Position numbers and translations under genes: made by a program. From Cladorhizidae sp. MBARI D1340-BT2 (taxonomy: Eukaryota > Porifera > Demospongiae > Poecilosclerida > Cladorhizidae), in contig JAQNBH010000003.1 of assembly GCA_028752905.1 (NCBI GenBank), positions 38,996,472 through 39,060,471 of the forward strand: DNA of 64,000 bases, read 5' to 3'. This document shows positions 1-52,764 of the stretch, piece by piece. Below the pieces are notes generated by a model. That model worked only from the letters and a program-made list of their open reading frames with translations, ran no database searches and had not been told where the DNA came from. Within the stretch, counting starts at the first letter, position 1. The number at the start of each line of letters is the position of its first letter.

Positions 1-202
1 TGGAGTAGACGACAACTCCAGGATAGTGTTGTTCTGTCTCTGTCGATTCAGTCGAAATATATTCTTCTGTTTCTTCGTCTGGAACAATTCCTTTTCTTAT
101 GCGGTCTTGATATGCAGTGAATGTAACTGGAATGGTAGTCGAAAAATGATTCCAAATGGCAAAGGAGTTGATTGTTTCGGATGTTATGTGCTTTTCGCTC
201 AT
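1..202 (-). CDS. Virus-like ORF B, 5' part, runs off window
   Basis: Minus-strand reading frame open from an ATG at 202-200 to the window edge, so only the first 67 codons are visible. Its ATG overlaps the TGA of the upstream ORF A in a four-base ATGA, an arrangement typical of compact viral or transposon transcription units. The visible part is acidic towards its end (runs of Asp, Glu, Ser and Thr) and contains IVPDEET; a 24-nt stretch around this motif recurs in the tandem units near 19,164. I do not recognise the family. A structural protein is possible from context only. Confidence 0.45.
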   Translation of the reverse strand, partial: MSEKHITSETINSFAIWNHFSTTIPVTFTAYQDRIRKGIVPDEETEEYISTESTETEQHYPGVVVYS

Positions 203-990
203 ACCTCCATTTGGTACAAATGCCCATTCCGAATTTTGAGCTTTGTATGGAATCCTGTATGTGTGTACCTATGCGATCCCATCAGATCGCCTGCAGCAGT
301 TAGGTTGTGTTCAAATTCGATTGTACCTGGATCGGTTATTTCGTGCTCAATTGCAAGAATTCTTGTGAATGGAACTCTTCCTGCCTGATCAGCTGCAGTA
401 GAATGTATGCCTAGATCCAAGATCGTGTCCACGATATGAGAAGGTTCATACTCGTTTTCTTCTTCTTTGTCGTTTTTTCGCATTTTGAATGGCAACACTT
501 TTACAACATCTTCTACAATCACTTCTTGCTCTATAACTTGCACTGGTTTCCATTCGACGTCCATTTTTTGGGTCAATTCGCCAACTTCGAGTACACCTTC
601 TTCGGGTGGTATTAGAGGGGCATCTTGCGAAAGCAATCCAGCAAACTCGTCAGATTTTTGATTTCCCATATCACCACTTGCTGCATTTCGTGCAAGAACG
701 TTGGCAACATTGTTTCCAACTATTTGACCCATCAAAGAATAATGGGTGCCATCAGCAATGTGGTCCACAAGTGCAGATGTTATTCCTGCAGTGTGCAGAG
801 CTGCCACTTGATGTGCATCTAAAGGAGCAAACTGAAGAGTCTGTGGATCTTCGAGTTTCACAAGTTTATTATTATTGCCACTGCTGTCAATGCTGGTTGT
901 TGTAGTAGTATTAGATTGGGTTTTTTTCTTTTGTGTTTTTTTCTGTTGCAATCCACGCAGCTGCTTTTCCAAAGCTTTAATCTGAGACAT
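199..990 (-). CDS. Virus-like ORF A, 263 aa, family unknown
   Basis: Intact minus-strand ORF. The frame opens upstream at a TTG, but the first ATG is at 990 and a TATA box lies about 36 bp upstream, so I place the start there (MSQIKALEKQLRGLQQ). The first 20 residues look like a short coiled coil. A Lys/Thr/Asn/Ser-rich linker follows (about 20-45), then a conserved block with QFAPLDAHQVAALHT and ITSALVDHIADGTHYSL (about 55-90), and an acidic Glu/Val-rich part. It ends by ATGA overlap with ORF B. The conserved block recurs on the minus strand in each tandem unit (19,206-19,343) and in the duplicate at 14.15-14.6 kb. Function is not recognised; a scaffold, minor structural or terminal protein are guesses. 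Confidence 0.6.
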   Translation of the reverse strand: MSQIKALEKQLRGLQQKKTQKKKTQSNTTTTTSIDSSGNNNKLVKLEDPQTLQFAPLDAHQVAALHTAGITSALVDHIADGTHYSLMGQIVGNNVANVLARNAASGDMGNQKSDEFAGLLSQDAPLIPPEEGVLEVGELTQKMDVEWKPVQVIEQEVIVEDVVKVLPFKMRKNDKEEENEYEPSHIVDTILDLGIHSTAADQAGRVPFTRILAIEHEITDPGTIEFEHNLTAAGDLMGSHRYTHTGFHTKLKIRNGHLYQMEV

Positions 991-1025
991 AGTCAACAAC
1001 AAATAAAGTATGCAAAGTAAATGCC

Positions 1026-1033
1026 TTTTATAA
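1026..1033 (-). promoter_or_regulatory. TATA box for ORF A
   Basis: The plus strand reads TTTTATAA here, giving TTATAAAA on the minus strand about 36 bp upstream of the ATG at 990. Initiation 25-30 bp downstream would leave a very short leader and would exclude the upstream TTG, supporting the ATG at 990. The same AT-rich site could also serve plus-strand transcription towards the spliced gene at 1125. Confidence 0.5.
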
Positions 1034-1124
1034 GGGGGAAAAAGTGTTAATTACGGATACCGGTTATCCTGTTTCCTGATTCCTGAATCAGACTTTTAGT
1101 ATTCCTCGTTTGTGTGTGACACAG

Positions 1125-1399
1125 ATGGAAGCAGAAAAAAAACAAAATGAAGGGGAGGGGATAACACCGACGACGACGACAGCATCTTCTTGGGTTCTGG
1201 GACAACCGATTCCCAGATCAAATAATATCGACATACCAAATAACAAGTAAGTTTTTTTAATCTCATTTACTTCTTTTTTTCTTTTCCTTCTTTTCTCTCT
1301 CTGTCCTATTTTTTTTCTAATTCATATATATATTTTTATTCATTTAGAGAAAGACGACCAGACTGTTATTGCAACTGCTCAAAATGTGTTAAAAAGTGA
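1125..1399 (+). CDS. Small spliced Cys-rich protein, 57 aa
   Basis: Two exons, 1125-1246 and 1348-1399, joined across an intron with GTAAGT donor and a pyrimidine-rich tract ending TTTAG. The spliced frame gives 57 residues ending at TGA 1397-1399. The N-terminal half is polar with a Thr run (TPTTTTASS); the C-terminus has a tight cluster, CYCNCSKC, followed by Lys. Such a cluster may bind metal. It lies between two minus-strand genes of the virus-like element and runs opposite to them. In the duplicate copy (14,741-15,014) a one-base loss in the A-run of exon 1 breaks the frame while the splice sites remain, so this copy looks the functional one. No family recognised. Confidence 0.5.
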
Positions 1400-1430
1400 C
1401 ACATTTAATATATTATTATTAGATCATTAT

Positions 1431-2780
1431 TTATGGATCATAAATTTTACAAAATCCTGTTTCATAAGGGTAAGAAAAAACAGAACATGGTCCATGTGAA
1501 ATTTCAATGCACATGCAAGGAACTTGTCTGTTCATGATGGACGAATAATTATTCATCAGATAACCAGTTACTATTTCATAATTGTAGGGCTTTGGAAGAA
1601 CATCACCAGGTTTTCTCAAGTAAGATCTGATTTCGTGAATGTCCATCCTTGCACTTATTTCTCCACAATCATCTGCAGGTAAGTTATTGCAGGTAACAAC
1701 GACGTGAGGAGGATGCAGCAAAGGCACAGTCGTTCCGTGAACATCTACCGTTGTAGCTGTTCCTCCCATCAGTTGCAGCATTAATGTTCTCTTCCCTTTT
1801 AACCAGCATTTTGGTGCTTCATCGAATAATACAACTGGATGATCCAGGCAAGGGCTCATTTTTCCGACGCCTTTGGCCGAAATGTTCAGATGGCCAACCC
1901 TGTTGTTCCAATTCAACTATTCACTGACCCACGTTTTGCCAACATTAGGTGGTCCTAGGAGAACAAGACTTTTCTTGCTGTTTGTGCTCTCTCTCATTTG
2001 TGTCAATCTAGCCATATGTATCATTAAATCGTAAGGCCTCTCCTGCATGATAACCCATTCAAACCAATACAAGGCAGTTGCAAAAGGAAGGGCTTTTATT
2101 TTTTCTTTGAGTCTTGCATTCTCATCACAAGAAAACAAGTACCTAAAATAAGATTCCAAATGAGTTTGGTGACTCACAAAATAATCAGAGTCGCCTTCAT
2201 CAAAAAAATTCTGTCTCATGTCGATAATGGATCTCAGCCCATCTTTTTCAATTCATTTTTTTATTTTTGCTTTTAACCGGACCAGTGTGCTCTTTGCCAC
2301 AGGGTCGTTATTGTTCTGTGTTCTCAGTTTAAGTTCGACTGGTTCGATTGATTTGTCGGCATCCTCAGGTTCGCCAGCTCGATCCCCCACGCCATTAAGA
2401 TTTTCTTTCAAAATGTAAAGGAGCAACTTTTCATAATCATAAATTTTAAAAAACTTTGGATTTTTCAGACGGTCCCCAGATTCAAGCAAACTGTCATTCA
2501 ATAGGTTTTGTAAACTTCTTCGAGTGAAACACGGTAGACTGGAAATTACAATATTTAAATGAGGAGTTGAACCTGCATTTCCTTCTTCATATGTAATGGT
2601 GCATTCGAATGACTCTGCAATGCTCGAAAGTGCTTTAGATATGTAGTGGTACATTGAAGACAACAAGATATTCCGAGTCAAATAATCTGCATCCATCCAA
2701 CCTGCATTTGCTGAAAGAACAACAAATGCTTTTTCATACTGTTTCCCATATACCATTTCTTTCGAATATATCTGATTCAT
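1431..2780 (-). pseudogene. Rep-like protein: HUH-like nickase region + SF3 helicase, broken by two stops
   Basis: One minus-strand frame of 450 codons from ATG 2780 to the stop at 1431, interrupted by TGA at 2255-2253 and TAG at 1919-1917. The first third has HLNIVIS after a Gly/Thr turn, reminiscent of the HUH motif of rolling-circle initiators with Asn in place of the second His, and later YILK resembling a catalytic Tyr/Lys motif. The second part has Walker A GPPNVGKT, Walker B VVLFDEA and a sensor-like VVTCNN, the order of superfamily 3 helicases of small DNA viruses (parvovirus NS1, papillomavirus E1). The TAG falls four codons after the Walker A Thr. The helicase call is firm; the HUH call is an inference. 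Both stops are also in the second copy, so they predate the duplication or are read through. Confidence 0.7.
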
Positions 2781-2815
2781 GATTTATGTAGAACGCATGC
2801 ACACGCACTAATGCA

Positions 2816-2822
2816 TTTTATA
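2816..2822 (-). promoter_or_regulatory. TATA box for the Rep-like gene
   Basis: The plus strand TTTTATA reads TATAAAA on the minus strand, 36 bp upstream of the ATG at 2780. With the plus-strand TATA at 2972 it makes the 2780-3028 interval a divergent promoter region. Confidence 0.55.
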
Positions 2823-2971
2823 GTCTGACAAACCAATCTGAACAAATTAACAAGTAATTCTTATCAGGTTAATTACTAAATAGTCCCACACTGTGCTGTA
2901 TTATACATGTGATGCTCAGCAATAGCAACATTAAATCATAATCAGTTATCACACCAGGAAAATTGTTTTCC

Positions 2972-2979
2972 TATAAAAA
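2972..2979 (+). promoter_or_regulatory. TATA box for ORF C
   Basis: TATAAAAA lies 49-56 bp upstream of the ATG at 3028, consistent with a start site near 3000. It faces away from the Rep promoter and is preserved in the second copy. Confidence 0.55.
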
Positions 2980-3027
2980 CAGGCTGGAGGAAATCAGAGA
3001 AAAGTACACTGCTTGAAGAAGGAAAAT

Positions 3028-3561
3028 ATGTCACTGAAGCATCCACCATCAACTATCTTCAAATCCGAAGCGAAAAAACGCAAACACGGCTTCAAGGAAG
3101 AAATGCTGAATCTAGCCTTCGATTGGTTTTTGGCGAATTGCACGGAAGAAGATCCGTTAGAAATCGAAATTAGTAATTTACCAGACCAATACAGAGAATC
3201 ATTTGATACACTCACTGTTGGCATAGAAGGCTTGTATGCTTGGGGATTGTTACCCAAGGATTGCAACCGCCTATACGAATTTGTAGCAGAAGAAATAGCT
3301 GAAAAACCTGTTGCATTGATTACATTGACAGACACTTTGATAAAATCTAAATGGAAACTGGAATTAGTTGGTGGAGGACCAGAAGCCACTGTTCTTAAGA
3401 ATACAGCTGACTGGAGCATATTCATAAAAAAATTTGTATCGGGATATCACGAATCTCTAAACGAAAGTTGTTGGTGCATAAGAAAAGAAGTTATGCTGTC
3501 TACCAGAAAACCAGCAAAGGAAGTCAGCTGTCTAAAAGTCTCTGGTGCCTACCAAATTATG
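3028..3561 (+). pseudogene. Virus-like ORF C, 5' part, split by a PLE fragment
   Basis: Plus-strand frame. The open frame begins at a TTG (3013), but the first ATG is at 3028 (MSLKHPPSTIF). About 178 residues remain before the sequence turns into proline-rich PLE-derived DNA. The start is Lys-rich, possibly a nuclear signal (EAKKRKHGF), followed by an acidic helical region with NLAFDWFLANC and TVGIEGLYAWGLLP. The frame continues into the PLE fragment and ends at 3735 in foreign sequence. The likely 3' remainder is at 4576-4923. It is divergently transcribed from Rep, so the element is ambisense. Family not recognised; a structural or regulatory protein is possible. Confidence 0.5.
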
Positions 3562-4575
3562 CAAAACCTCCCCTGTGATACCTTTCCAAATCCCACCTCA
3601 CCCAAACACCCTCCAAATACCCGTCTGCAAACCCCAAACCCCTCCCAATCCCACATTGCCACCAATAACTGCTCCCCGGTTGGCCATCCCCACGCCCCTG
3701 CCCACCCCAAACCCCACCAACCCCGAGATCCATGAGATGGAGGAGGAGATGAATGCCACCCAGGGGCCACCCACCCCATCTCCACCCACCAGCCCGTCTA
3801 CGAGCCAAGATGAGGACTCCTCACTGCCCCTCACCTCTGGGTCATCGGACCCACCCACACCACCATCACCTCAGCGTCCGATGGGGATGGGGGAGGGACT
3901 ACTCCATGCCAGGAGAGCGTTCCGGAGGAAGACTGCCTACCACCTCAGGGTGAAAACCCACCTCAAGTTCCTCCGGGACTCAAAGTCCCACCACCACATC
4001 CCCAAAGGCCTGAGGGTCCAGAGAAAGAAGTGCTGGGCCATGGGGGGAGGGGATGCAGGCGAGGCCCTGACCTCAACCTTTGAAAGAATAGCAAAGGAGG
4101 CTGAGGAGGCCAGGCTCGAGGCCCTGGTCATACATTACACCGCCCTGATAGAGACCACAGCCAGGGAGGTGCGGTCTGCCTGCGACACACATGACAAGCT
4201 TGCCCTAGACCCAGCCCTGACCAAGGAGCTGGACGATGGGGATGTGTGGCTGAGAACCAACAACAACCTGAAAAAACTCGAAAAGGGCCTCCAGAAAAAG
4301 GCAAACCGCAAATTCCGAAGGTTTGGCCCCCCAGCCCGCCTGCCTCCTCTACAGAGCACTGATGCTCTGCACCTGGATGAAATAAACAACCTCAGCATCA
4401 CTGAAGAAAACCCAACCGATGGGATACATTAAAAAAATTAATAAAGCCAAAAAAAAATCACCTCAAATGAGCTCTACCTACAGCCAGACAGTGGACACTA
4501 CCACCAAAACGAGAGGAGAGCGACAGTGGGCAGGAGGGAGAAGAGGAGGGAGAAAAGAAGAAACAGATTCCTGTC
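3562..4575 (+). mobile_element. Penelope-like element fragment (N-terminal region) inserted in ORF C
   Basis: A plus-strand frame (within 3545-4432) carries a proline-rich leader and then a block with HLKFLRDSKSHHHIPKGLRV, like the N-terminal region of Penelope-like element proteins. It matches the longer PLE ORF at 8887-9948 in order, including VRLPP/ARLPP and a basic Arg/Lys tail. No reverse transcriptase or GIY-YIG domain is present, so this is a truncated insertion. Its left part was copied along with the virus-like element to 17,169-17,604. Confidence 0.6.
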
Positions 4576-4923
4576 GAACAGCTTCATGGGCTTACAAACA
4601 GTAAGTATGCATTTCCAACAGGAGGAACAATGTATTCCTTTGCCACGAAGAAAACCGTAAAAATTGCTCCAATGTTGGACCACATCTTAAAAGTGGTTGC
4701 AATGGTCGGAAATGACATAAAGAAAGTCGTTTCCACCATGGCTATGGCTGCTGTTACTTCCCCAGATGCCGTGGAAAATTACAGAAAATGGTTCTCTAAT
4801 CCTTTAGCTATTATAGCGTTGCACTGTGAAATCAACAACGACACCAAAAAAAAAATTCTTTTATTATTTTACGATATAGTTACTGTAGAAAATGTATCAA
4901 CCAATCAATGCATTACACAATAG
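4576..4923 (+). pseudogene. Probable 3' part of virus-like ORF C
   Basis: Where the PLE similarity ends (after about 4574), a plus-strand frame opens in sequence unlike the PLE and continues to the stop at 4921-4923, about 115 residues including FPTGGTMYSFATKK and VAMVGNDIKKVVSTMAMA. Orientation and position fit the rest of ORF C displaced by the insertion, but the join is inferred. Alternatively it is a separate small gene starting at ATG 4630 (97 aa). Confidence 0.4.
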
Positions 4924-4955: not shown

Positions 4956-5127
4956 CATCCCAACAACAACCTGATGTGCTCCTAATCATTCCGACAAGCT
5001 CTCCTCAACCTGCTGTGCTCCTAACTAACCATCCCGACAAGCTCTCCTCAACCTGCTGTGCTCCTAACTAACCATCCCGACAAGTTCTCCTCAACCTGCT
5101 GTGCTCCTAACTAACCATTCCGACAAG
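4956..5127. repeat. Tandem repeat, 43-bp unit, about 4 copies
   Basis: Unit contains CTCCTCAACCTGCTGTGC and CTAACTAACCATCCCGACA; the unit starts at 4998, 5041 and 5084 are exactly 43 bp apart. The first copy is degenerate. No coding frame. Confidence 0.85.
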
Positions 5128-5213
5128 CCCAATCAATATGCCATCCATCTCTCTTCCATCATCTCCATCGTAAGAGAGTAATCTGTGTTTCGTGATTGAA
5201 TGTATTATTGTCT

Positions 5214-5378
5214 GTTTATCATGTTAGACCACGTTTCATGTAAAGCATCTAATCTGTTCTCTCCTCCTCCCTTCCCTCCCTCTCTGCCTTTGAGTAGTGG
5301 ATACTGGCACGGCACTGTGCAAGTTCGCTCGCGGAAGTTTATCATGTTAGACCACGTTTCATGTAAAGCATCTAATCT
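5214..5378. repeat. 42-bp exact direct repeat
   Basis: A 42-bp sequence beginning GTTTATCATGTTAGACCACG occurs at 5214-5255 and again at 5337-5378, separated by CT-rich DNA. Too short for LTRs; probably a local duplication. Confidence 0.8.
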
Positions 5379-5744
5379 TTAATAATAAATTTAAAAATGC
5401 TTTTCTCAAAAGTTATTTTTTTGTCGTTGACAAGAGAGAGCATTTCGGGTTTTCTGCCATCAGCTGATTTCTTCCTCCATTCAGGAATATTGAATCAGGA
5501 TCTGCCTCAACACTTTATAATATTCGTTAATAACAAAATTCTTCCCAAGTAATAGTTTTCTTTACAAATAATAATAATCAGCCTGCCTTTAAGAGAGCCA
5601 TTCTTCTGTGGATTTTTATTCTTTTTCAAGACTAAAAACTGTTTTACTTTTTACCTCGTAGCTCACTCATTCTTTTCGATTTCTTTCTGTTGAAATCTTT
5701 TCAATAAAGAAGAGCTAAGTCGGTGACTGTTGAATTAAAAGTAT
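5379..5744. other. No gene seen; AT-rich spacer
   Basis: AT-rich DNA without a convincing coding frame. Short phrases such as CAGCTGATTTCTTCCTCCATTCAG recur near 6,630, so it probably belongs to the dispersed repeat filling 5.7-7.8 kb. Confidence 0.5.
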
Positions 5745-7760
5745 AGTTTTTGTGCAACTACCTGAAGCACATCTGTTTTCATTTGAATTGCATCTCACTG
5801 CGTATAATGAGCATTCGAATGATGACAATAATAATTGTTAATAATAATTTCAATAACAAAAATCTAGCCCAAGTCATAGTTTTCTTTTTACCTTACTAAT
5901 AATATCAGCCTGTGAAGAAACATTTGATGACATAGACATCTTCAAGTGCAATTGTTTGATCTCGACGTACTTCCCAATGCTGTTGAATTTGTTCTCTTTT
6001 TGACTTCTGCTGTCTCAGCTGATTCTTTCTTTCTTCTTGATCACATCTGACTCAGTGACTGTTGAGAAACTATAAGTGTAATTTATAAATCTTTCCCCTT
6101 GTTGGCATCGGACCATCTGAATATAATGGGATAAAATAAATATATACTGCCATTTGGAAGGAATATTCTTTTCAAGTCATAGATAGATAGTAGTATTCTT
6201 TGGCTCTTTTTGAGATATGTACACATTCTCAGTGATATAGTGATGGGAGGAGAGTAGCGGACTGGAAGAATAGGACTCTCGTTGTTGTTATTGTATATTT
6301 TTAAGGCAACCAACCAACGTTTTCTCTGTCTGAATAACACTTCTTGCTTTTGAATAATAATAGCATAAATGGTAGGTAGGTGAGACAATAAAAAATAAAT
6401 GAAATGTCTTGTGGTGATTCGCAAGTGAAGGGCTTGAAATTACAGACGGATGTGGCGCCACGATAAATCCATTGGGGATTTGTTTCGTGCATTTTCTTTT
6501 GGGTGTTGTTGGCTTCTTGAGAGATTGGCATTCTCTTTGAAGGTACTCCATCATTATTCCATTGGTTATCTCTGTGATGACTACTAGCAGGTTCGCTGAT
6601 TTTAAATCCCGGTGAATCGCAGCAGACTTTGAGCTGATTTCTTCCTCCATTCAGCTGATTCAAATTCTGAATCTGTTGATGTTGATGTTGCTGGGCATGT
6701 TTGCACTGTTATTGCTACTTTATAATAATCGTTAATAATAATTTCAATATAAAAAATTCTTCCCAAGTCATAGTTTTCTGTACATATATACTAATAATAC
6801 TTGGCCTGCCTTCAAGAAACAAAAAACTAAAATCAAGCAGTGACTTTTACCTCATCAACTCGTCAGTAAGCCTCCCATCTTTAGACTTAAGATTACTGCA
6901 CACATCGGTAATGTTTTAATAAATCCATTTTTGTGCAACTGCCTGAAGCACATCTGTTTTCATTTGAATTGCATCTCACTGAATATAATGAGCATTCGAA
7001 TGATGACAATAATAATCGTTAATAAACAATCTATTCCAAGTCTTCTTTTACCTACTAATAATACTCAGCCTATGAACAGACATTTGATGATATAGACATC
7101 TTCAAGTGCACTTGTTTGATCTCGACGTATTTCCCAATGCTGTTGAATTTGTTCACGCTTTCTGTTCTTTTTGACTTCTGCTGTCATCAGCTGATTCTTT
7201 CTTTCTTCTTGATTGAAATTTTTCAATAAATAGCTAATAATAAATCAGTGACTGTTGAGAAACTACAAGTGTAATTTATAAATATTTCCCCTGTTGGCAT
7301 CGGACCATCTGAATATAATAATAGGATAAAATAAATATAGACTGCCATTTGGAAGGAACCACTTCTTGGTATTGGAGATATGTACACATTCCCAGTGACT
7401 AATATAAATAAATATTCTTTTCAAGTCATAGATAGTTTTCTTTGGCTCTTTTTGGAATATTTACACATTCATAGTGATATAGTGATGGGAGGAGAGTAGC
7501 GGACTGGAAGAATAGGACTCTCGTTGTTGTTATTGTATATTTTTAAGGCAACCAACCAACGTTTTCTCTGTCTGGATAACACTTCTTGCTTTTGAATAAT
7601 AATAGCATAAATGGTAGGTAGTTGAGACAATAAAAAATTAATGAAATGTCCTACTGTGGTGGGTGGTGCTTCGCAAGTGAATGGCTTGAAATTACAGCGC
7701 AGTTTCTTCATGATGCTTGCCTCTTGCAAGAAAGCATATGGATGCATTAGTAATAATAGT
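5745..7760. repeat. Two diverged direct copies of a non-coding repeat, about 1.2 kb apart
   Basis: The blocks near 5,748-6,475 and 6,928-7,690 share the same phrases in the same order: TGAAGCACATCTGTTTTCAT, GAATATAATGAGCATTCGAA, TTGGCATCGGACCATCTGAA, GGCAACCAACCAACGTTTTC. Both have scattered indels and no long conserved frame. Short minus-strand frames here (6083-6663, 7469-7747) are repeat-derived. The element class is not recognised. Confidence 0.65.
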
Positions 7761-7823
7761 AATAATACTGCATGGTGCCTTCCTTGTAAATGGTCATGAT
7801 GAATCCATTAGGGGCCATAGTTC

Positions 7824-8249: not shown

Positions 8250-8886
8250 TTGTGTGTTGGTGGGATAGTATCAGCATAGTTACAGGTGGAGCAGGTGGGT
8301 AGATATAAGAGAAAAAAGAAAAGGTATTTATTGTGACCAGCGTCACTTTACCGAGTGTGCATTAAATAGAATGGCGAGATATGGGTGGTGTTTGGATGTG
8401 TTTGTAGCTTGCAGTAAATGTTTGTCTTGTGTGCTGTGTAGGGTTCGCTCTGGTTCTGTCGTCTCTGGAGGTTTGTGGTGGTGGTGGTGCTCCTGTCCAT
8501 TCCCATAAGGTACGGGTCGTCCTAGGGTGGGGTTTTCGGCTCTTCTGTTGTCTTCCTGTTCTCATCCACGTATCCAAGACTCTGGGGGGGCTTGAGACCT
8601 GTGTGTCTCACATTACAAGGTTGGCTTGACAGTATGTGGAGTCCCTTTCCCTCTCACCCGCCCCGGATAGTTAGTCCTAGGCGGGCATTGGGTTGGTTGT
8701 TACCCTTAATAATGCCACCCCCTTGACCCCTATCTGATGCACACACCCCTAGGAACTCACAAATTTCCGTGACTAGCTGGGAGGGGAAATACGGGTGCGG
8801 ACCCACTAATACAACATACATACATGCCCACTACACACACACATGGAGATAACCCAAGCAAATAAAATACAACCAACCCATGTCCG
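8250..8886. other. Non-coding PLE flank
   Basis: GT-rich and CA-rich sequence between the inverted terminal block and the PLE ORF. AACTCACAAATTTCCGTGAC and ACACACACAC runs lie near 8,755-8,850. No coding frame supported. Confidence 0.4.
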
Positions 8887-9948
8887 ATGGGGATGGAGGA
8901 GGGACTACTCCAGGCCAGGAGGAGGTTCCGGAGGACAACTGCCCACCACCTCAGGGTAAAAACCCACCTCCAGTTCCTCCGGGACTCCAAGTCTCACCAC
9001 CACATCCCCAGAGGCCTGAGGGTCCAGAGGACGAAGTGCTGGGCCATGGGGGGAGAGGATGCCGCCCGGACACTGACCCAGACCTTCGAAAACATAGCCA
9101 GGGAGGCTGAGGAAGCAAGGCTGGAGGCACTGATTCTACACTACAGCGCCCTCATAGAAACTACAGGCAGGGAGGTGGACTCGGCATGTGACTCACACGA
9201 CCTGCTGGCCCTGGACCCAAACCTCACCAAGGAACTAAACGACGAGGGGGTGTGGCAGAGGACCCACAACAACCTCAAAAGACTGGAGAGGGGCCTCCTG
9301 AAAAAAGTGAATCGAAAATTTCGGAGACTTGCCCCTCAAGTCCGCCTGCCACCCCCACAGAGCACTGAGCCACTGCACCAGGACAATACTGCCACCAGGA
9401 GCGCTGCTGACCAGCATCCCACCGGTGAGGCACCCCCAATAATAAAAAAATACAATAAAACCAAAAATAATAAAAAACCACCCCAGACAAGCTCTGCCTC
9501 AGACCAACCAATGGACACCCACGCCCAACAAGAGAGGACTGTGACCACGGGCAGGAGAGAGAAGAAGAGGGAGAAGAGGAGGAATAGATTCCTGGAGAAC
9601 CAAAAGGTCTACCCAACGGGATATGGACCACCAGACCTAACCAGGAATAATAAAAAAGACAAACCCACACCCTCTATCTCCCTTCTACCGGGGCCCAGCC
9701 GCCGCCCCTCGGCCGAAGATCACCCCAGAACCAGACCACAGGACATTCACCGCCTCCCAGCCAACCCCATACTCATTCACCGCCTCCCCACACCTCCTAA
9801 TAGACCACCACCACAATTCCCCCCACCCCATGTCCAACCCCAAACCTTATTTAACACCCATCATCAATCCATGCCACCACAACAACCTCGACGTGAATTT
9901 GATAGTGTGGCGCCACATGTTCAGCGCCTCCATGGCCCGGTCCAATGA
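8887..9948 (+). pseudogene. Penelope-like element ORF, N-terminal region, 353 aa
   Basis: Open frame from ATG 8887. It carries the PLE N-terminal block (FLRDSKSHHHIPRGLRV near residue 30-48), a long helical stretch (EAEEARLEALILHYSALIET), a basic segment, then a very proline-rich tail with repeated HRLP. PLE proteins normally continue into a reverse transcriptase and often a GIY-YIG endonuclease; here the frame ends in proline-rich sequence and the only RT remnant lies on the opposite strand, so the element was rearranged. A closely related shorter copy is at 3.6-4.6 kb. Confidence 0.6.
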
Positions 9949-10116: not shown

Positions 10117-10508
10117 CCCTACTCACTCTAAACCTCTATTCTTCCTTTTTTTCATATATTTCTATTTCATACCCACCCAATTACACACCCTGTAATGTTT
10201 CTAACAGGCACTAATTAAACACCACATACATCACAGCACCTTCAAGCCATATACACCGCACCTCATTCCCCTCACAAGCACATGTCTCACTTGTAAAAAT
10301 TGCACTGAAGAAGGAGCACCCAGAATCGCTCTGAAATATATTTGCCAAAACTTTACATTTATCAAAGACTTTTGTGAGTTCCTAGATACTAGCCTAGTAT
10401 ATATACATATATATATATAAAAACTATGTCGAGATGCCTTCCTGATGAGCCACCAGCTAGGTCCACTCGGAGCCACACCTTGACCCCTGCTCCCCGGGCT
10501 GCAGTCGG
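10083..10508 (+). repeat. PLE terminal (pseudo-LTR-like) sequence, forward copy
   Basis: Inverted partner of 7,824-8,249. Diverged forms of the same sequence occur in each tandem unit (18,316-18,608 and equivalents), where it ends at the same phrase CCCCGGGCTGCAGTCGG; that phrase therefore marks the element boundary. Confidence 0.6.
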
Positions 10509-11050
10509 ATGTCTCTTCTTGGTTGGTGGTTCTTTTGCTTTTTTCTGTGTGTCTTTGCTGCTCGAAGAAATGTTTTTGTTATTTCATTATATTATTATTA
10601 TTTTCTACGCAGATTAACTCTCTTTTTTTCCTCGTTATAGGAGTCTGATGAATGAAGCCTGGTAAAAATGGAAATTCATCAGCTTCCATCTTCCCACTCA
10701 AATGAGGTTACATGTCATTTATTTATTATATCGGACTGGATGAAGAGGGAGTGATTTTCTGTGGTGTTAGTGGTGAACCTCAAAATGAAATGTTGATGAG
10801 GTACAATAAACCAGAGAGGAGAGATGAAAACTACATCGAAACAGAGAAGCTACTTGTGCCTTCTTCAACATTTCATTTTGAGGTTATCCCGCCAATCACA
10901 GAAAATCACTCTTCCCACCATCTCGTCGGGAAATTCTAACCAATGGGAAATAAGACTCAGAAGATCCTTAGGAACTGAATAAAAAAGCAACAGAAAAATG
11001 AACACCAGAATGAATGAACGCTGGAAAAAACTACCTGAATCGACAACAAC
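10509..11050. other. Spacer with a 21-bp perfect inverted repeat
   Basis: A 21-bp sequence at 10,776-10,796 (AACCTCAAAATGAAATGTTG plus A) returns as its reverse complement at 10,865-10,885, with a 68-bp spacer. A 75-codon frame (10,712-10,939) spans it, but the symmetry explains that frame. No family recognised. Confidence 0.5.
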
Positions 11051-11587
11051 ATGGATACCACCACCGATATAATAAACACCGTGGGTGCCGAGATAGCCAC
11101 CCTGAGTGCAGAGATCACCGTCTTGAATGCTGAGAATGCCACCCTGAGTGCCGAGACCGCCGCCGTCTTGAAAGCCGATATCGACGATACCACCAAAAAA
11201 ATAGACGCCACCTTCGATGACAAAATCGAAAGTACGAATAAGATCAAGATTGTGCGTGTTCTTCCTGACAAGGAGGGTGCATCCACCAACAACAATGACG
11301 AAGAAAATAATATATCTGAATTTCCATGGATAACTAAAAATATTCAAACTTATCTAAATGAATGTATGATGCAGGGATACATGATAGAGATAGACTCATA
11401 TGATTCTGATAATGATAATACAATATATTTTTTTAAAATTATATATTATATATATGTGACAGGCTCTGGGAAAAGGGCCCACTTCGCGCAGATATTGAAA
11501 TTGAGATACAACCTAAAACAATGCCTAGGCCAAAATTTTATAAAATCCATTTTATTAGCTTATAAGTATCTATTACCTTTTAGCTAA
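11051..11587 (+). CDS. Hypothetical coiled-coil protein, 178 aa
   Basis: Open frame from ATG 11051. The first 60 residues are built from near-repeats (EIATLSAEI, ENATLSAET) giving a heptad-like coiled coil; an acidic, Asn-rich middle follows, then a hydrophobic stretch with VTGSGKRAHF. The DNA of residues about 51-68 (11,202-11,253) reappears at 17,605-17,656 next to the second virus-like copy, so this locus took part in a rearrangement. No known family; the AT-rich second half may be read-through of non-coding DNA. Confidence 0.35.
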   Translation: MDTTTDIINTVGAEIATLSAEITVLNAENATLSAETAAVLKADIDDTTKKIDATFDDKIESTNKIKIVRVLPDKEGASTNNNDEENNISEFPWITKNIQTYLNECMMQGYMIEIDSYDSDNDNTIYFFKIIYYIYVTGSGKRAHFAQILKLRYNLKQCLGQNFIKSILLAYKYLLPFS

Positions 11588-14144: not shown

Positions 14145-14606
14145 CTATGAAGCTTGCACTGGTTTCCATTCGACGTCCATTTTTTTGGTCAATTCGCCAA
14201 CTTCGAGTACACCTTCTTCGGGTGGTATTAGAGGGGCATCTTGCGAAAGCAATCCAGCAAACTCGTCAGATTTTTGATTTCCCATATCACCACTTGCTGC
14301 ATTTCGTGCAAGAACGTTGGCAACATTGTTTCCAACTATTTGACCCATCAAAGAATAATGGGTGCCATCAGCAATGTGGTCCACAAGTGCAGATGTTATT
14401 CCTGCAGTGTGCAGAACTGCCACTTGATGTGCATCTAAAGGAGCAAACTGAAGAGTCTGTGGATCTTCGAGTTTCACAAGTTTATTATTATTGCCACTGC
14501 TGTCAATGCTGGTTGTTGTAGTAGTATTAGATTGGGTTTTTTTCTTTTGTGTTTTTTCCTGTTGCAATCCACGCAGCTGCTTTTCCAAAGCTTTAATCTG
14601 AGACAT
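14145..14606 (-). pseudogene. ORF A, second copy, 3' truncated
   Basis: Same frame as 199-990 from ATG 14606 with a few substitutions, but cut at the duplication breakpoint after EWKPVQ, so the last 110 or so residues are missing. Confidence 0.6.
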
Positions 14607-14740
14607 AGTCAACAACAAATAAAGTATGCAAAGTAAATGCCTTTTATAAGGGGGGGAAAGTGTTAATTACGGATACCGGTTATCCTGTTTCCTGATTCCT
14701 GAATCAGACTTTTAGTATTCCTTGTTTGTGTGTGACACAG

Positions 14741-15014
14741 ATGGAAGCAGAAAAGAAAAAAATGAAGGGGAGGGGATAACACCGACGACGACGACAGCAT
14801 CTTCTTGGGTTCTGGGACAACCGATTCCCAGATCAAATAATATCGACATACCAAATAACAAGTAAGTTTTTTAAATCTCATTTACTTTTTTTCTTCTTTT
14901 TTTTCTTTTCTCTCTCTGTCCTATTTTTTTTCTAATTCATATATATATTTTTATTCATTTAGAGAAAGACGACCAGACTGTTATTGCAACTGCTCAAAAT
15001 GTGTTAAAAAGTGA
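14741..15014 (+). pseudogene. Small spliced Cys-rich gene, second copy, frameshifted
   Basis: Counterpart of 1125-1399. ATG, donor, acceptor and the Cys-cluster exon are all present, but the A-rich stretch in exon 1 is one base shorter and the frame runs into a stop. Confidence 0.5.
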
Positions 15015-15050
15015 CACATTTAATATATTATTATTAGATCATTATTTATG

Positions 15051-16387
15051 GATCATAAATTTTACAAAATCCTGCATAAGGGTAAGAAAAAACAGAACAT
15101 GGTCCATGTGAAATTTCAATGCACATGCAAGGAACTTGTCTGTTCATGATGGACGAATAATTATTCATCAGATAACCAGTTACTATTTAATTGTAGGGCT
15201 TTGGAAGAACATCACCAGGTTTTCTCAAGTAAGATCTGATTTCGTGAATGTCCATCCTTGCACTTATTTCTCCACAATCATCTGCAGGTAAGTTATTGCA
15301 GGTAACAACGACGTGAGGAGGATGCAGCAAAGGCACAGTCGTTCCGTGAACATCTACCGTTGTAGCTGTTCCTCCCATCAGTTGCAGCATTAATGTTCTC
15401 TTCCCTTTTAACCAGCATTTTGGTGCTTCATCGAATAATACAACTGGATGATGCAGGCAAGGGCTCATTTTTCCGACGCCTTTGGCCGAAATGTTCAGAT
15501 GGCCAACCCTGTTGTTCCAATTCAACTATTCACTGACCCACGTTTTGCCAACATTAGGTGGTCCTAGGAGAACAAGACTTTTCTTGCTGTTTGTGCTCTC
15601 TCTCATTTGTGTCAATCTAGCCATATGTATCATTAAATCGTAAGGCCTCTCCTGCATGATAACCCATTCAAACCAATACAAGGCAGTTGCAAAAGGAAGG
15701 GCTTTTATTTTTTCTTTGAGTCTTGCATTCTCATCACAAGAAAACAAGTACCTAAAATAAGATTCCAAATGAGTTTGGTGACTCACAAAATAATCAGAGT
15801 CGCCTTCATCAAAAAAATTCTGTCTCATGTCGATAATGGATCTCAGCCCATCTTTTTCAATTCATTTTTTTATTTTTGCTTTTAACCGGACCAGTGTGCT
15901 CTTTGCCACAGGGTCGTTATTGTTCTGTGTTCTCAGTTTAAGTTCGACTGGTTCGATTGATTTGTCGGCATCCTCAGGTTCGCCAGCTCGATCCCCCACG
16001 CCATTAAGATTTTCTTTCAAAATGTAAAGGAGCAACTTTTCATAATCATAAATTTAAAAAAACTTTGGATTTTTCAGACTGTCCCCAGATTCAAGCAAAC
16101 TGTCATTCAATAGGTTTTGTAAACTTCTTCGAGTGAAACACGGTAGACTGGAAATTACAATATTTAAATGAGGAGTTGAACCTGCATTTCCTTCTTCATA
16201 TGTAATGGTGCATTCGAATGACTGCAATGCTCGAAAGTGCTTTAGATATGTAGTGGTACATTGAAGACAACAAGATATTCCGAGTCAAATAATCTGCATC
16301 CATCCAACCTGCATTTGCTGAAAGAACAACAAATGCTTTTTCATACTGTTTCCCATATACCATTTCTTTCGAATATATCTGATTCAT
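15051..16387 (-). pseudogene. Rep-like gene, second copy
   Basis: Counterpart of 1431-2780. The Walker A (GPPNVGKT) and Walker B (VVLFDEA) parts are preserved and the same TAG separates them (15,526-15,528). Further damage includes deletions near 16,222 and 16,055 in the nickase region and near 15,188 and 15,074 in the C-terminal part. Confidence 0.65.
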
Positions 16388-16634
16388 GATTTATGTAGAA
16401 CGCATGCACGCGCACTAATGCATTTTATAGTCTGACAAACCAATCTGAACAAATTAACAAGTAATTCTTATCAGGTTAATTACTAAATAGTCCCACACTG
16501 TGCTGTATTATACATGTGATGCTCAGCAATAGCAACATTAAATCATAATCAGTTATCACACCAGGAAAATTGTTTTCCTATAAAAACAGGCTGGAGGAAA
16601 TCAGAGAAAAGTACACTGCTTGAAGAAGGAAAAT

Positions 16635-17168
16635 ATGTCACTGAAGCATCCACCATCAACTATCTTCAAATCCGAAGCGAAAAAACGCAAACACGGCTTC
16701 AAGGAAGAAATGCTGAATCTAGCCTTCGATTGGTTTTTGGCGAATTGCACGGAAGAAGATCCGTTAGAAATCGAAATTAGTAATTTACCAGACCAATACA
16801 GAGAATCATTTGATACACTCACTGTTGGCATAGAAGGCTTGTATGCTTGGGGATTGTTACCCAAGGATTGCAACCGCCTATACGAATTTGTAGCAGAAGA
16901 AATAGCTGAAAAACCTGTTGCATTGATTACATTGACAGACACTTTGATAAAATCTAAATGGAAACTGGAATTAGTTGGTGGAGGACCAGAAGCCACTGTT
17001 CTTAAGAATACAGCTGACTGGAGCATATTCATAAAAAAATTTGTATCGGGATATCACGAATCTCTAAACGAAAGTTGTTGGTGCATAAGAAAAGAAGTTA
17101 TGCTGTCTACCAGAAAACCAGCAAAGGAAGTCAGCTGTCTAAAAGTCTCTGGTGCCTACCAAATTATG
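16635..17168 (+). pseudogene. ORF C 5' part, second copy
   Basis: Same sequence as 3028-3561, starting at ATG 16635 behind the same TATA. It runs into the PLE fragment; the 3' part of ORF C is absent here. Confidence 0.5.
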
Positions 17169-17604
17169 CAAAACCTCCCCTGTGATACCTTTCCAAATCC
17201 CACCTCACCCAAACACCCTCCAAATACCCGTCTGCAAACCCCAAACCCCTCCCAATCCCACATTGCCACCAATAACTGCTCCCCGGTTGGCCATCCCCAC
17301 GCCCCTGCCCACCCCAAACCCCACCAACCCCGAGATCCATGAGATGGAGGAGGAGATGAATGCCACCCAGGGGCCACCCACCCCATCTCCACCCACCAGC
17401 CCGTCTACGAGCCAAGATGAGGACTCCTCACTGCCCCTCACCTCTGGGTCATCGGACCCACCCACACCACCATCACCTCAGCGTCCGATGGGGATGGGGG
17501 AGGGACTACTCCATGCCAGGAGAGCGTTCCGGAGGAAGACTGCCTACCACCTCAGGGTGAAAACCCACCTCAAGTTCCTCCGGGACTCAAAGTCCCACCA
17601 CCAC
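17169..17604 (+). mobile_element. PLE N-terminal fragment, second copy, shortened
   Basis: Copy of 3,562-3,997, cut right after the FLRDSKSHHH codons, where it is joined to a 52-bp piece of 11,202-11,253. Confidence 0.6.
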
Positions 17605-17656
17605 AAATAGACGCCACCTTCGATGACAAAATCGAAAGTACGAATAAGATCAAGAT
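17605..17656 (+). repeat. 52-bp piece of the 11,051 ORF at a junction
   Basis: AATAGACGCCACCTTCGATG and the following 32 bases match 11,202-11,253. To the right the sequence continues as CATGTCCTACCAACATTAAA, which is unit sequence found at 27,113 and 37,923. Confidence 0.7.
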
Positions 17657-19005: not shown

Positions 19006-19205
19006 CTAACCAACTGTCTAAACTCTTTATAACTATAATATTAACTAGTCGACCGCACACCGCTTCTCAGAAAGAGTCCAGTCCACAACTGCCAAGCATT
19101 AGCTGATTGAACGTGTTCGTCCCACCTAATTCAGGTATACGGAAGTATGTCATGGTGCACGCGAGAATTGTTCCAGACGAAGAAACAGGGACTACTTTAC
19201 TTATC

Positions 19206-19343
19206 AAAGAGTAATGTGTGCCATCAGCAATGTGGTCCACGAGTGCAGACGTTATTCCTGCAGTGTGCAGAGCTGCCACTTGATGTGCATCCAAAGGAGC
19301 AAACTGAAGGGTCTGTGGATCTTCGAGTTTATTAGGTTTATTA
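19206..19343 (-). pseudogene. Inverted fragment of virus-like ORF A, unit 1
   Basis: Minus-strand frame repeats the ORF A block DAHQVAALHTAGITSALVDH and DGTHYSL, matching 738-866 at the DNA level with about a dozen changes. Beyond both ends the sequence differs. On the plus strand just before it, IVPDEETG recalls ORF B, so pieces of ORF A and ORF B from a relative lie here in opposite orientation. Confidence 0.6.
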
Positions 19344-29811: not shown

Positions 29812-30016
29812 CTAACCAACTGTCTAAACTCTTTATAACTATAATATTAACTAGTCGACCGCACACCGCTTCTCAGAAAGAGTCCAGTCCACAACTGCCA
29901 AGCATTAGCTGATTGAACGTGTTCGTCCCACCTAATTCAGGTATACGGAAGTATACGATGTCATGGTGCACGCGAGAATTGTTCCAGACGAAGAAACAGG
30001 GACTACTTTACTTATC

Positions 30017-30154
30017 AAAGAGTAATGTGTGCCATCAGCAATGTGTTCCACGAGTGCAGACGTTATTTCTGCAGTGTGCAGAGCTGCTACTTGATGTGCA
30101 TCCAAAGGAGCAAACTGAAGGGTCTGTGGATCTTCGAGTTTATTAGGTTTATTA
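30017..30154 (-). pseudogene. Inverted fragment of virus-like ORF A, unit 2
   Basis: Unit 2 counterpart with three or four extra substitutions (for example TGGTCCACG to TGTTCCACG) shared with unit 3. Confidence 0.55.
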
Positions 30155-40623: not shown

Positions 40624-40828
40624 CTAACCAACTGTCTAAACTCTTTATAACTATAATATTAACTAGTCGACCGCACACCGCTTCTCAGAAAGAGTCCAGT
40701 CCACAACTGCCAAGCATTAGCTGATTGAACGTGTTCGTCCCACCTAATTCAGGTATACGGAAGTATACGATGTCATGGTGCACGCGAGAATTGTTCCAGA
40801 CGAAGAAACAGGGACTACTTTACTTATC

Positions 40829-40966
40829 AAAGAGTAATGTGTGCCATCAGCAATGTGTTCCACGAGTGCAGACGTTATTTCTGCAGTGTGCAGAGCTGCT
40901 ACTTGATGTGCATCCAAAGGAGCAAACTGAAGGGTCTGTGGATCTTCGAGTTTATTAGGTTTATTA
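40829..40966 (-). pseudogene. Inverted fragment of virus-like ORF A, unit 3
   Basis: Unit 3 counterpart. Confidence 0.55.
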
Positions 40967-47344: not shown

Positions 47345-47454
47345 TTGACCAAGTAACAAAGAAGATATAAAATCATCAACCAGTCCTTCTACTCTGTGTT
47401 CTGCATAGTTTACAGGGAATTTTTAAAAAACAATACGTCGTTATTGTTGCTTTG

Positions 47455-49279
47455 ATGCCTTTCCATATGGAACATTATATCTCTCTGAGGAACAAAAAAA
47501 AAAAAACGAGATCTACGAATGTGTGCAATAGACGTAGCGTTTTACGATTGATCTTAGTTCCATCGTACGGGGCAGAGCTACATTTCAATATCGATTTTTC
47601 ATTCTTATCAGAAAAAAACAGAAGTTCGATTATTGATACTTTCGGTTCTACTACATGGGAAGACTGGAAAGAAAAACTGGTATCAGTGGAATCCACCTTG
47701 TGGACAGTGCAATTGGAGATAGAATTCCCACACACCGATAACATCGAACTTCCTTCGATGACATGGTGGCAGGAATTATTAGCAGATTCGAATTTAGAGG
47801 TTTTCTTTTTGTCTATGAACACACGAGCGTACATCGAACGTAAATGCTGCACGATGAAAATACGTAAGGGACGTTGTTTTTGGCCAGAATCTCAAAAACC
47901 GTCAACATTGACCAAGAAAGATATCCAGAACTGGTATCAAAAACAAGCAACACTCCATGTTTCTATAAAAAATGATGGTGAGCATGCGATTATTTTTCTT
48001 AACGATAACAGTGAATTTCCCCAACAAGACAAAAAATCTTAACACTGGGAAGTACATACAAGGACTTCACTATTTTAGAAGCAGAATGGGAGGAAAAACA
48101 GAAAAAATTGGTAATTTTTGGTGTTTTGGTATCTAATGGTGTTAAAAATACTAAAAATTTCACACAAACAATCGAGGAGATGACTGTGTGGCGAGATGTG
48201 GATTTGTCAATGAAAATAGAGACAAAAAAGTGGAAAACAACAATGGGTGGTATACCAGAGTCTCTGGTACAAATGTCCAAGAATCCTGAGGTAGAAGGTC
48301 TGATTATGGTATTGGAAGAGTTCCCATCTCCATGTTTTAAATATAAGAACTTACCAACTGCTGATTTTCTAACTGATCCAATGGATTTGAGCCACCACCT
48401 AATGACATGGCATTCGTCGCAACTGGTTATTCTAGAATGTCCAGATGTATCTGATTTTTGGATAGATCGTCGAGATCATCACAGTACATTTTATGTTGAG
48501 AGAGGTCATGTATGTCAATTCTCTTCAGTTTTTATAGAAAAAACAAAGACAGACCCCAATACAGATTGGCAAGAAGTAGCAAAGACATCAGTATCGGAAT
48601 GGTTTTATTCCACCAAGTTCAACTGGTGGAGTTTTTTGAGATCGAGAAAGGACAAAAAGATACCGAACAGTTGGCGAACAATCGAGACAACTCTTCATCA
48701 GAGTCTCCATCCTCTGACAGATAAAATTCTGATGGATTTTCAGTGTTGTAATAGTTATTTCACCAATGCAGTAGATCCGGAATTTGAAAAATCTAGATAT
48801 ATACTTGCTATCACAGTGTCGTCGACATCTTATGCATCGATATCTATTCGAGGGGATGAACATAATATGTCTCGGATCTGGTAGAGGTTCAGAGATTTTA
48901 GCATTCTTGGAAAAGGCATCCATTGGAACAAGAATGTGTCTATTCTGATATAAAGCCTGTTATCAGACCCTCTGTTACAATCCAAAAAAAAACATTCTTA
49001 ACCCAACTAGGAATCTCAACTGTCCCAGTTGACATACTGATCTCTTTCGTCTGTATCTGTACAATGTCAGCAGATGTCCGACATGCGACTTCACGGACAT
49101 GAAATGTTGTATTGGAATCAAATTGTAGACTTCCAGCCGAAGACGACGCCTCTACAACTGCCCATAGCATCTCAAGAACTGGTGCTGTTGATTTCAAGTA
49201 CGGAGCATAATACATTGTCACAGTTCTCCCCAGGATTTTTGTTAAGGATAGGGGCAATGTCGTTGGAGTGTGACTGATA
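47455..49279 (+). pseudogene. Long broken coding region, family unknown
   Basis: Plus-strand frames follow one another with shifts: 47,455-48,042 (AELHFNIDFSFLSEKNRSSI, EIEFPHTDNIELPSMTWWQE), 48,108-48,884 (VLEEFPSPCFKYKNLP, DRRDHHSTFYVERGHVCQF), then another frame (IICLGSGRGSEILAFLEKAS, GISTVPVDILISFVCICTMS) and a last piece ending RIGAMSLECD at 49,277. The protein-like texture is continuous on one strand, so this was one or two genes of about 600 residues. I do not recognise the family. A large structural or replication protein of a virus-like element is possible from context only. Confidence 0.4.
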
Positions 49280-52659: not shown

Positions 52660-52764
52660 AGTAACTGAGCGGAGCTAAGAAGTCTGTGTGCAGTAAAAAC
52701 ACAGAAAACGAGGTATATAGCACCCGGCCGCACCCTAATTTTTCAGTTGTCCAGCTATCTCAGA

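What the first reader, a model, noticed from the sequence alone, without database searches (positions are those of the whole stretch)
1..4923. Ambisense virus-like element with a HUH-like/SF3 Rep and unrecognised partner genes
Walker A GPPNVGKT, Walker B VVLFDEA and VVTCNN identify an SF3 helicase of small-DNA-virus type on the minus strand. The surrounding ORF A, ORF B, ORF C and a spliced Cys-rich gene do not resemble the usual parvovirus capsid set as far as I can read, yet they have viral layout: ATGA overlap, divergent TATA promoters, very short spacers. It may be an endogenous copy of an undescribed virus or virus-derived transposon lineage of a marine invertebrate.
Basis: partly seen in the sequence, partly recalled or inferred. 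Interest (0 to 1): 0.88.

Follow-up and report, generated by a model that had tools for sequence, protein, structure and literature searches.

The report
Endogenous 20-kb virus-like mobile element

Summary
The HUH-like/SF3 Rep is real, but the 1-4923 unit is not. It is part of one decayed, rearranged copy of a ~20.2-kb endogenous element found many times in this genome (Rep: 97 match rows on 15 contigs). Full-length copies have inverted terminal repeats over 1.1 kb, and each tip is a ~460-490-bp imperfect palindrome. Two independent insertions show exact 4-bp target duplications. Three copies with the same stop-containing Rep sit at sites with unrelated flanks, so they probably moved in trans. 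Genes: ORF C, Rep, a 710-aa virion-like protein (VP), D, E, G, I, small F and a small spliced Cys-rich gene. ORFs A and B are one gene, frameshifted here; ORF C is split by an insert. VP, Rep and E are mostly under purifying selection. The helicase matches papillomavirus E1 best (Pfam 6.6e-6, just under cut-off). No other ORF has a credible match where tested. Both structure predictions failed. Best reading: a virus-derived, Rep-driven mobile element of a new lineage near adomavirus- and polinton-type viruses. The integrating enzyme, capsid fold and host remain unknown.

The parts
2..202 (-). ORF B: continuation of the VP-like gene in another frame, running off the window's left edge
   Evidence: VP residues from 245 on at about 97% identity in L001 and L017
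199..990 (-). ORF A: residues 1-244 of the 710-aa VP-like protein, then a shifted 19-aa tail
   Evidence: 7 of 69 match rows keep residues 1-244 in an open frame of 731-736 aa
1125..1399 (+). Small spliced Cys-rich gene, exons 1125-1246 and 1348-1399 (about 57 aa), opposite strand between VP and Rep
   Evidence: Donor kept in 14 of 14 and TTTAG acceptor in 13 of 14 full-span matches; splicing not shown by RNA
1431..2780 (-). Rep: N-terminal HUH-like domain and SF3 helicase; one frame with two in-frame stops in this copy
   Evidence: an uninterrupted 449-aa frame exists elsewhere; PF00519 E=6.6e-6
2781..3027 (.). Divergent intergenic region between Rep and ORF C (presumed promoters)
   Evidence: Head-to-head order kept in L047; promoter activity not tested
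3028..3565 (+). ORF C, first part
   Evidence: Within a 1200-column match, 95.7% identical to the C5 copy, that ends at 3565
3566..4570 (+). Insert without counterpart in the C5 copy, GC-rich and retroelement-like (relative at 8882-9383); not part of the element
   Evidence: the Penelope-like label is recalled, no family match
4571..4862 (+). ORF C, second part (includes most of the ORF 4630-4923)
   Evidence: 96.3% identical to C5:20863821-20864114; uninterrupted frame in L014
4856..4944 (.). Sequence of the terminal-palindrome loop joined directly to ORF C (rearranged end)
   Evidence: 92% to both termini of the C5 copy
4996..7774 (.). Right-hand part of the element without long ORFs, inverted relative to the C5 copy, with internal repeats
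   Evidence: Pieces 80-97% identical to C5:20869464-20871551; repeats
10507..11455 (.). Further right-hand element pieces, overlapping the small ORF 11051-11587
   Evidence: 83-89% to parts of C5:20864718-20869276, plus one 78% piece
14145..17172 (.). Second partial copy: truncated VP, Rep and ORF C; the same insert junction follows
   Evidence: 14145-17605 is 99.2% identical to 531-3998; Rep row with five stops
19191..19330 (.). VP gene fragment (residues ~39-94) carried in a 10.8-kb tandem unit; again at 30002-30141 and 40814-40953

Best explanation
A virus-derived (possibly still viral) DNA mobile element of about 20.2 kb with a replication module related to papillomavirus E1/parvovirus NS1. 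SHOWN by sequence: discrete ends, inverted terminal repeats over 1.1 kb, a palindrome at each tip, 4-bp target duplications at two independent sites, seven larger genes (C, Rep, VP, D, E, G, I) plus small F and a small spliced gene, purifying selection on VP, Rep and E, and three copies with the same stop-containing Rep at sites with unrelated flanks. INFERRED: Rep nicks and unwinds the terminal palindromes so that host polymerases copy the element (rolling-hairpin-like); VP, D, E and G form or serve a particle; one unrecognised product, or an enzyme borrowed from the host, inserts the DNA with a 4-bp staggered cut; defective copies are mobilised in trans by intact ones. The window copy is a dead, rearranged member.
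For: Both ends palindromic and inverted to each other. Arms bracket stretches of 20.20, 20.21 and 20.26 kb, and 21.6 and 21.8 kb in two longer copies. Direct repeats TTAG and TGGT. C2, C4 and C7 copies: equal Rep rows with one TAG and equal VP rows; similarity at their ends starts at the tip or within 11 bases of it, with only chance-level matches outside. dN/dS: VP 0.15-0.17 in 3 of 4 pairs, Rep 0.06-0.11 in 3 of 4, E 0.11, G 0.28. Rep homology to E1.
Against: No capsid, protease, ATPase, polymerase or integrase was recognised by Pfam in the ORFs tested; Walker A occurs only in Rep among nine reference sequences of eight genes. ORF D shows dN/dS 1.5; one VP pair 0.48, the window VP fragment 0.48 and window RepN 0.70, the last two being what decay of the window copy would give. 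The C5 copy has only a 3-bp flank match; the C7 duplication lies in a local host repeat. No exogenous relative in the IMG/VR scans (queries ORF A, VP, Rep, E and motifs, not D, G, C or I). HUH function rests on short motifs, the second His being Asn.
Confidence: 0.55

Rival explanations
1. A DNA transposon with palindromic ends that captured a virus genome as cargo (Teratorn-like fusion); the transposase is supplied in trans and the viral genes ride along.
For: TSD and trans mobility; arms also at shorter spacing, such as C13:8998233-9005493 and C14:42172688-42186567; a transposase-like ORF reads into the C5 right end (my reading, no family test).
Against: No transposase found in the ORFs tested; purifying selection on VP, Rep and E suggests the viral genes still matter.
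Confidence: 0.2
2. A polinton/adintovirus-type (meldvirus) element that lost PolB and integrase and uses a Rep instead.
For: Size of ~20 kb, long terminal repeats, unrecognised virion-like genes; chimeras of such modules are described in PMC11071296 (sections 13, 14 and 16 read).
Against: TSD is 4 bp, against 6 bp in polintons (recalled); no ATPase, protease or double jelly-roll recognised.
Confidence: 0.13
3. Ordinary germline fossils of a circular adomavirus-like virus, inserted by chance and multiplied by segmental duplication.
For: E1-type Rep; adomaviruses as defined in PMC11071296 are circular, 9-20 kb, with an SF3 helicase, and some have unrecognised 'Xeno' late regions; duplications are real (C13 pair; C307 array).
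Against: Fixed tips with palindromes at unrelated sites, two with TSDs.
Confidence: 0.08
4. A standard endogenous parvovirus.
For: HUH-like plus SF3 layout and terminal palindromes.
Against: 20 kb instead of 4-6 kb (abstract of PMC11357303, seen in listing); E1-type helicase; no parvovirus capsid match.
Confidence: 0.02

Closest known systems
Adomaviruses (RepE1 class, and those with a 'Xeno' late region; PMC11071296)
   Same: E1-type SF3 helicase, size near 20 kb, virion genes without sequence relatives; one is described from a Tegillarca clam, and other species names recall mollusc genera (my recall)
   Different: They are predicted circular; this is an integrated unit with long inverted repeats, palindromic tips and 4-bp TSDs
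Parvoviruses and bidnaviruses
   Same: HUH-like plus SF3 Rep, palindromic termini
   Different: Far larger, helicase nearer E1, no VP or PolB match
Polintons/adintoviruses
   Same: ~20 kb, long TIRs, many copies, multigene
   Different: No PolB, rve integrase, ATPase or protease recognised; TSD 4 bp, not 6 (recalled)
Teratorn (PMC5601938; title and start of abstract seen in listing only)
   Same: Virus genome that behaves as a transposon
   Different: Herpesvirus plus piggyBac, 180 kb; here a small-DNA-virus Rep and no known transposase

Membership tests
Parvoviridae | NS1-type HUH+SF3 replicase as nearest relative | tested here: not met
   The only viral family listed by Pfam is PF00519 (E1); the four best PDB chains are all E1
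Parvoviridae | Linear 4-6 kb genome | tested here: not met
   Element ~20.2 kb between terminal palindromes
Parvoviridae | Palindromic termini | tested here: met
   ~460-490-bp imperfect palindromes at the tips
Parvoviridae | Parvovirus VP capsid fold | tested here: inconclusive
   No sequence match; model pLDDT 26
Adomaviruses (definition in PMC11071296) | SF3 helicase of E1/LT/Cress class | tested here: met
   (Pfam score just under its cut-off)
Adomaviruses (definition in PMC11071296) | Circular 9-20 kb genome | tested here: inconclusive
   Only integrated copies seen; fixed ends with TSDs argue for a linear unit
Adomaviruses (definition in PMC11071296) | Candidate Penton and Cah genes | tested here: inconclusive
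   No sequence hit; structure failed
Polinton/Maverick | PolB and rve integrase | tested here: not met
   No such Pfam match in the larger ORFs; a diverged gene could be missed
Polinton/Maverick | FtsK-type ATPase | tested here: not met
   Walker A only in Rep among nine reference sequences of eight genes
Polinton/Maverick | 6-bp target duplication (recalled) | tested here: not met
   4 bp at two independent sites
Papillomaviridae | ~8-kb circle with L1/L2 (recalled) | tested here: not met
   ~20 kb, no L1/L2 Pfam match
Virus-transposon fusion (Teratorn-like) | Known-superfamily transposase inside the element | tested here: not met
   No transposase in the ORFs tested

The most novel reading that the evidence does not exclude
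A new class of self-replicating virus-transposon: an E1/NS1-type Rep with hairpin-tipped ~1.1-1.45-kb terminal repeats replicates a ~20-kb genome by a rolling-hairpin route, a still unknown recombinase inserts it with 4-bp duplications, and it carries its own unrecognised virion genes, much as polintons do with PolB and integrase.
Probability: 0.3. Interest if true: 0.9.

Novelty: new variant of a known kind. Interest (0 to 1): 0.7.

Why it matters
Papilloma-, polyoma-, parvo- and adomaviruses share a Rep, and one hypothesis is that they descend from larger, polinton-like ancestors (stated in PMC11071296, passage seen). A ~20-kb element that joins an E1-type Rep with hairpin termini, transposon-like insertion and a large set of conserved unknown genes is a candidate intermediate, and its many copies of different age in one genome make it datable. 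The unknown integrating enzyme and capsid are direct targets for structural work.

Tried and rejected
The PDB hit of ORF A to 8fre ('RBL4', E=1.1e-5) is to a designed repeat protein (paper seen in listing) and was dropped. FlxA and DUF294_C Pfam hits of ORF A are below cut-off. AlphaFold models of VP (pLDDT 26, 5 near-identical sequences) and Rep (pLDDT 34, 13 rows) are unusable, so no fold search was run. Eight IMG/VR scans gave no relative; one search used a gap one base too short (shown) and is void as a test. ORFs A and B as two genes: rejected. The C5 copy as a TSD witness: rejected, its left flank recurs at the right end of the C5b copy. Host identification by COX1: not answered. Literature: the searches listed no description of this element; that is no proof that it is unpublished.
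Full report
WHAT IS IN THE WINDOW. The Rep motifs are real. Rep occupies 2780-1431 on the minus strand, in one frame, with two in-frame stops. The finding's other genes are real coding remnants with different boundaries. ORFs A and B are one gene: 7 of 69 match rows to ORF A hold residues 1-244 in an open frame of 731-736 aa, giving a 710-aa protein from the first Met. ORF C is split by ~1 kb of GC-rich sequence without counterpart in the C5 copy and partly similar to 8882-9383 (82%). The spliced Cys-rich gene keeps its donor in 14 of 14 and its TTTAG acceptor in 13 of 14 full-span matches. A second partial copy at 14145-17605 is 99.2% identical and shares the insert junction, so the two are segmental duplicates.

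THE WHOLE ELEMENT. Natural copies were compared in pieces. Order along the C5 copy: ORF G (-), F (+), E (-), D (-), VP (-), Cys-rich (+), Rep (-), ORF C (+), small repeated ORFs, ORF I (+), then a region without long conserved ORFs. Long open frames for G, E, D, VP, Rep and I exist in one or more copies. Parts of the same gene set were found in eight further, mostly decayed loci; one of the eight gave VP only.

ENDS. C5:20853004-20854448 and 20871734-20874773 are inverted repeats; the right one carries ~1.6 kb of extra sequence. The outer ~490 bp of each C5 end is an imperfect palindrome, 85-87% self-complementary, with arms of ~170 bp; ends on C13 and C307 show the same (470 and 489 columns, 85-89%). 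In C5b the repeats align over 1122 bp with 7 mismatches; in C13b over 1369 columns with 6 mismatches and 28 gap positions. A 161-bp arm gave 41 matches (lower bound): by my count 30 form 15 opposed pairs 220-330 bp apart and 11 are single. Arms bracket 20.20 and 20.21 kb on C13, 20.26 kb on C5, and 21.6 (C7) and 21.8 kb (C5) in two longer copies; one end of C5b and of C7 is single-armed in the list. Direct repeats next to the tips: TTAG at C13 (35.26 and 35.37 Mb, one insertion duplicated with its flanks) and TGGT at C7, the latter within a local host repeat; C5 has only 3 bp. By chance one exact 4-bp match is 1/256, two independent ones about 1.5e-5, before allowing for the choice of tip.

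MOBILITY. Copies on C2, C4 and C7 give equal Rep rows (94%, residues 1-372, one TAG) and equal VP rows. At the equivalent ends (C2 low, C4 low, C7 high) the best similarity starts at the tip (C2 with C4 and with C7) or within 11 bases of it (C4 with C7), and in the 225-239 bases outside only chance-level matches were seen. So copies with the same broken Rep sit at different sites, which points to movement in trans. Clusters and tandem arrays also exist (C307, ~23-kb spacing from the coordinates). I have not excluded that some placements are assembly artefacts.

SELECTION. Nei-Gojobori dN/dS (12 comparisons): VP 0.147, 0.150, 0.167 and 0.480 (the last on 8 differences); Rep 0.060, 0.108, 0.104 and 0.698 (the last the window's N-terminal piece); E 0.113; G 0.282; D 1.507; window VP fragment 0.483. 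No tree or significance test was made.

REP AFFINITY. An intact 449-aa Rep matches PF00519 papillomavirus E1 helicase over residues 250-370 (E=6.6e-6, 25.9 bits, cut-off 26.5). The four best PDB chains, by single sequence and by profile, are papillomavirus E1 (best E 0.0049 and 0.0014). No parvovirus NS1 family was among the four Pfam families listed at E up to 10. PMC10433990 (passages seen) groups papilloma-, adoma- and polyomavirus helicases apart from parvoviruses. The N-terminal domain has HLN at 74 and YILK at 122, but HLN recurs at 297 and Y..K at 46 and 387; that this is an HUH nuclease is inferred. Weak AAA_22, IstB and nSTAND3 hits are attributed to the P-loop.

OTHER GENES. No Pfam match at E up to 10 for VP or D; the hits for E (0.31) and I (best 0.025) are far below cut-off; G, F and ORF C none; the small 146-aa ORF has weak coiled-coil-type hits (best 0.017). 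VP has no credible PDB match. Roles as capsid or core proteins are guesses from size, order and selection.

EXTENT. Rep: 97 match rows (of 260 first-look candidates 94 were scored; one copy can give several rows) on 15 contigs, identity 37-100%; many weaker ones on C16 and C7 cover only residues 1 to ~200. One such locus (L047) keeps the divergent start of ORF C, hinting at older lineages or a Rep-N/ORF C derivative.

COMPARISON. It works like a virus-derived transposon. By tests it is not a parvovirus, papillomavirus or polinton. Adomavirus membership is open: helicase class met, circularity and penton unresolved (PMC11071296, sections 13, 14 and 16 and passages read). Hence 'new variant of a known kind' (Rep-bearing mid-size DNA viruses and their endogenous forms), with about 0.3 for the bolder reading that it is a class of its own.

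Noticed in passing
window 18081-46366: About 2.6 head-to-tail copies of a 10.8-kb unit, 99-99.6% identical, each carrying a 140-bp fragment of the VP gene: satellite-like amplification of element debris.
   Followed up: partly
window 47371-48884 (+): Two overlapping open frames, the second with a weak mRNA capping enzyme C-terminal match (PF03919, E=4.4e-5, just under cut-off); could be a remnant of another large virus or a host gene.
   Followed up: no
window 49603-50259 (-) and 52669-53577 (+): hAT dimerisation domain (PF05699) and Mutator-like transposase (PF20700) remnants.
   Followed up: no
G000:C307:913049-979378: Eight VP fragments (residues 39-94, 82%), most 7.4-8.0 kb apart: a second tandem family with the same VP piece as the 10.8-kb units.
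   Followed up: no
G000:C16:34.75-37.01 Mb and C7:19.5-21.7 Mb: Many Rep matches restricted to residues 1 to ~200 at 40-61% identity: the nuclease-like domain may exist without the helicase.
   Followed up: partly
L015 4061-5602 (-), ORF D: dN/dS about 1.5 between two copies (31 nonsynonymous, 6 synonymous differences): relaxed or diversifying selection in the one pair tested.
   Followed up: no
L014 4343-5503 (+), ORF I: Acidic, low-complexity middle and a C-terminal part shared by copies, no relatives found by Pfam; possible regulator.
   Followed up: no
L051-L054 (tips on C7, C4, C2): The C2 and C4 tips are 100% identical over 202 bp to the C7 tip at the other end by gene order, but 95-97% to the equivalent one: arms may be exchanged or flipped, as in hairpin replication.
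   Followed up: no
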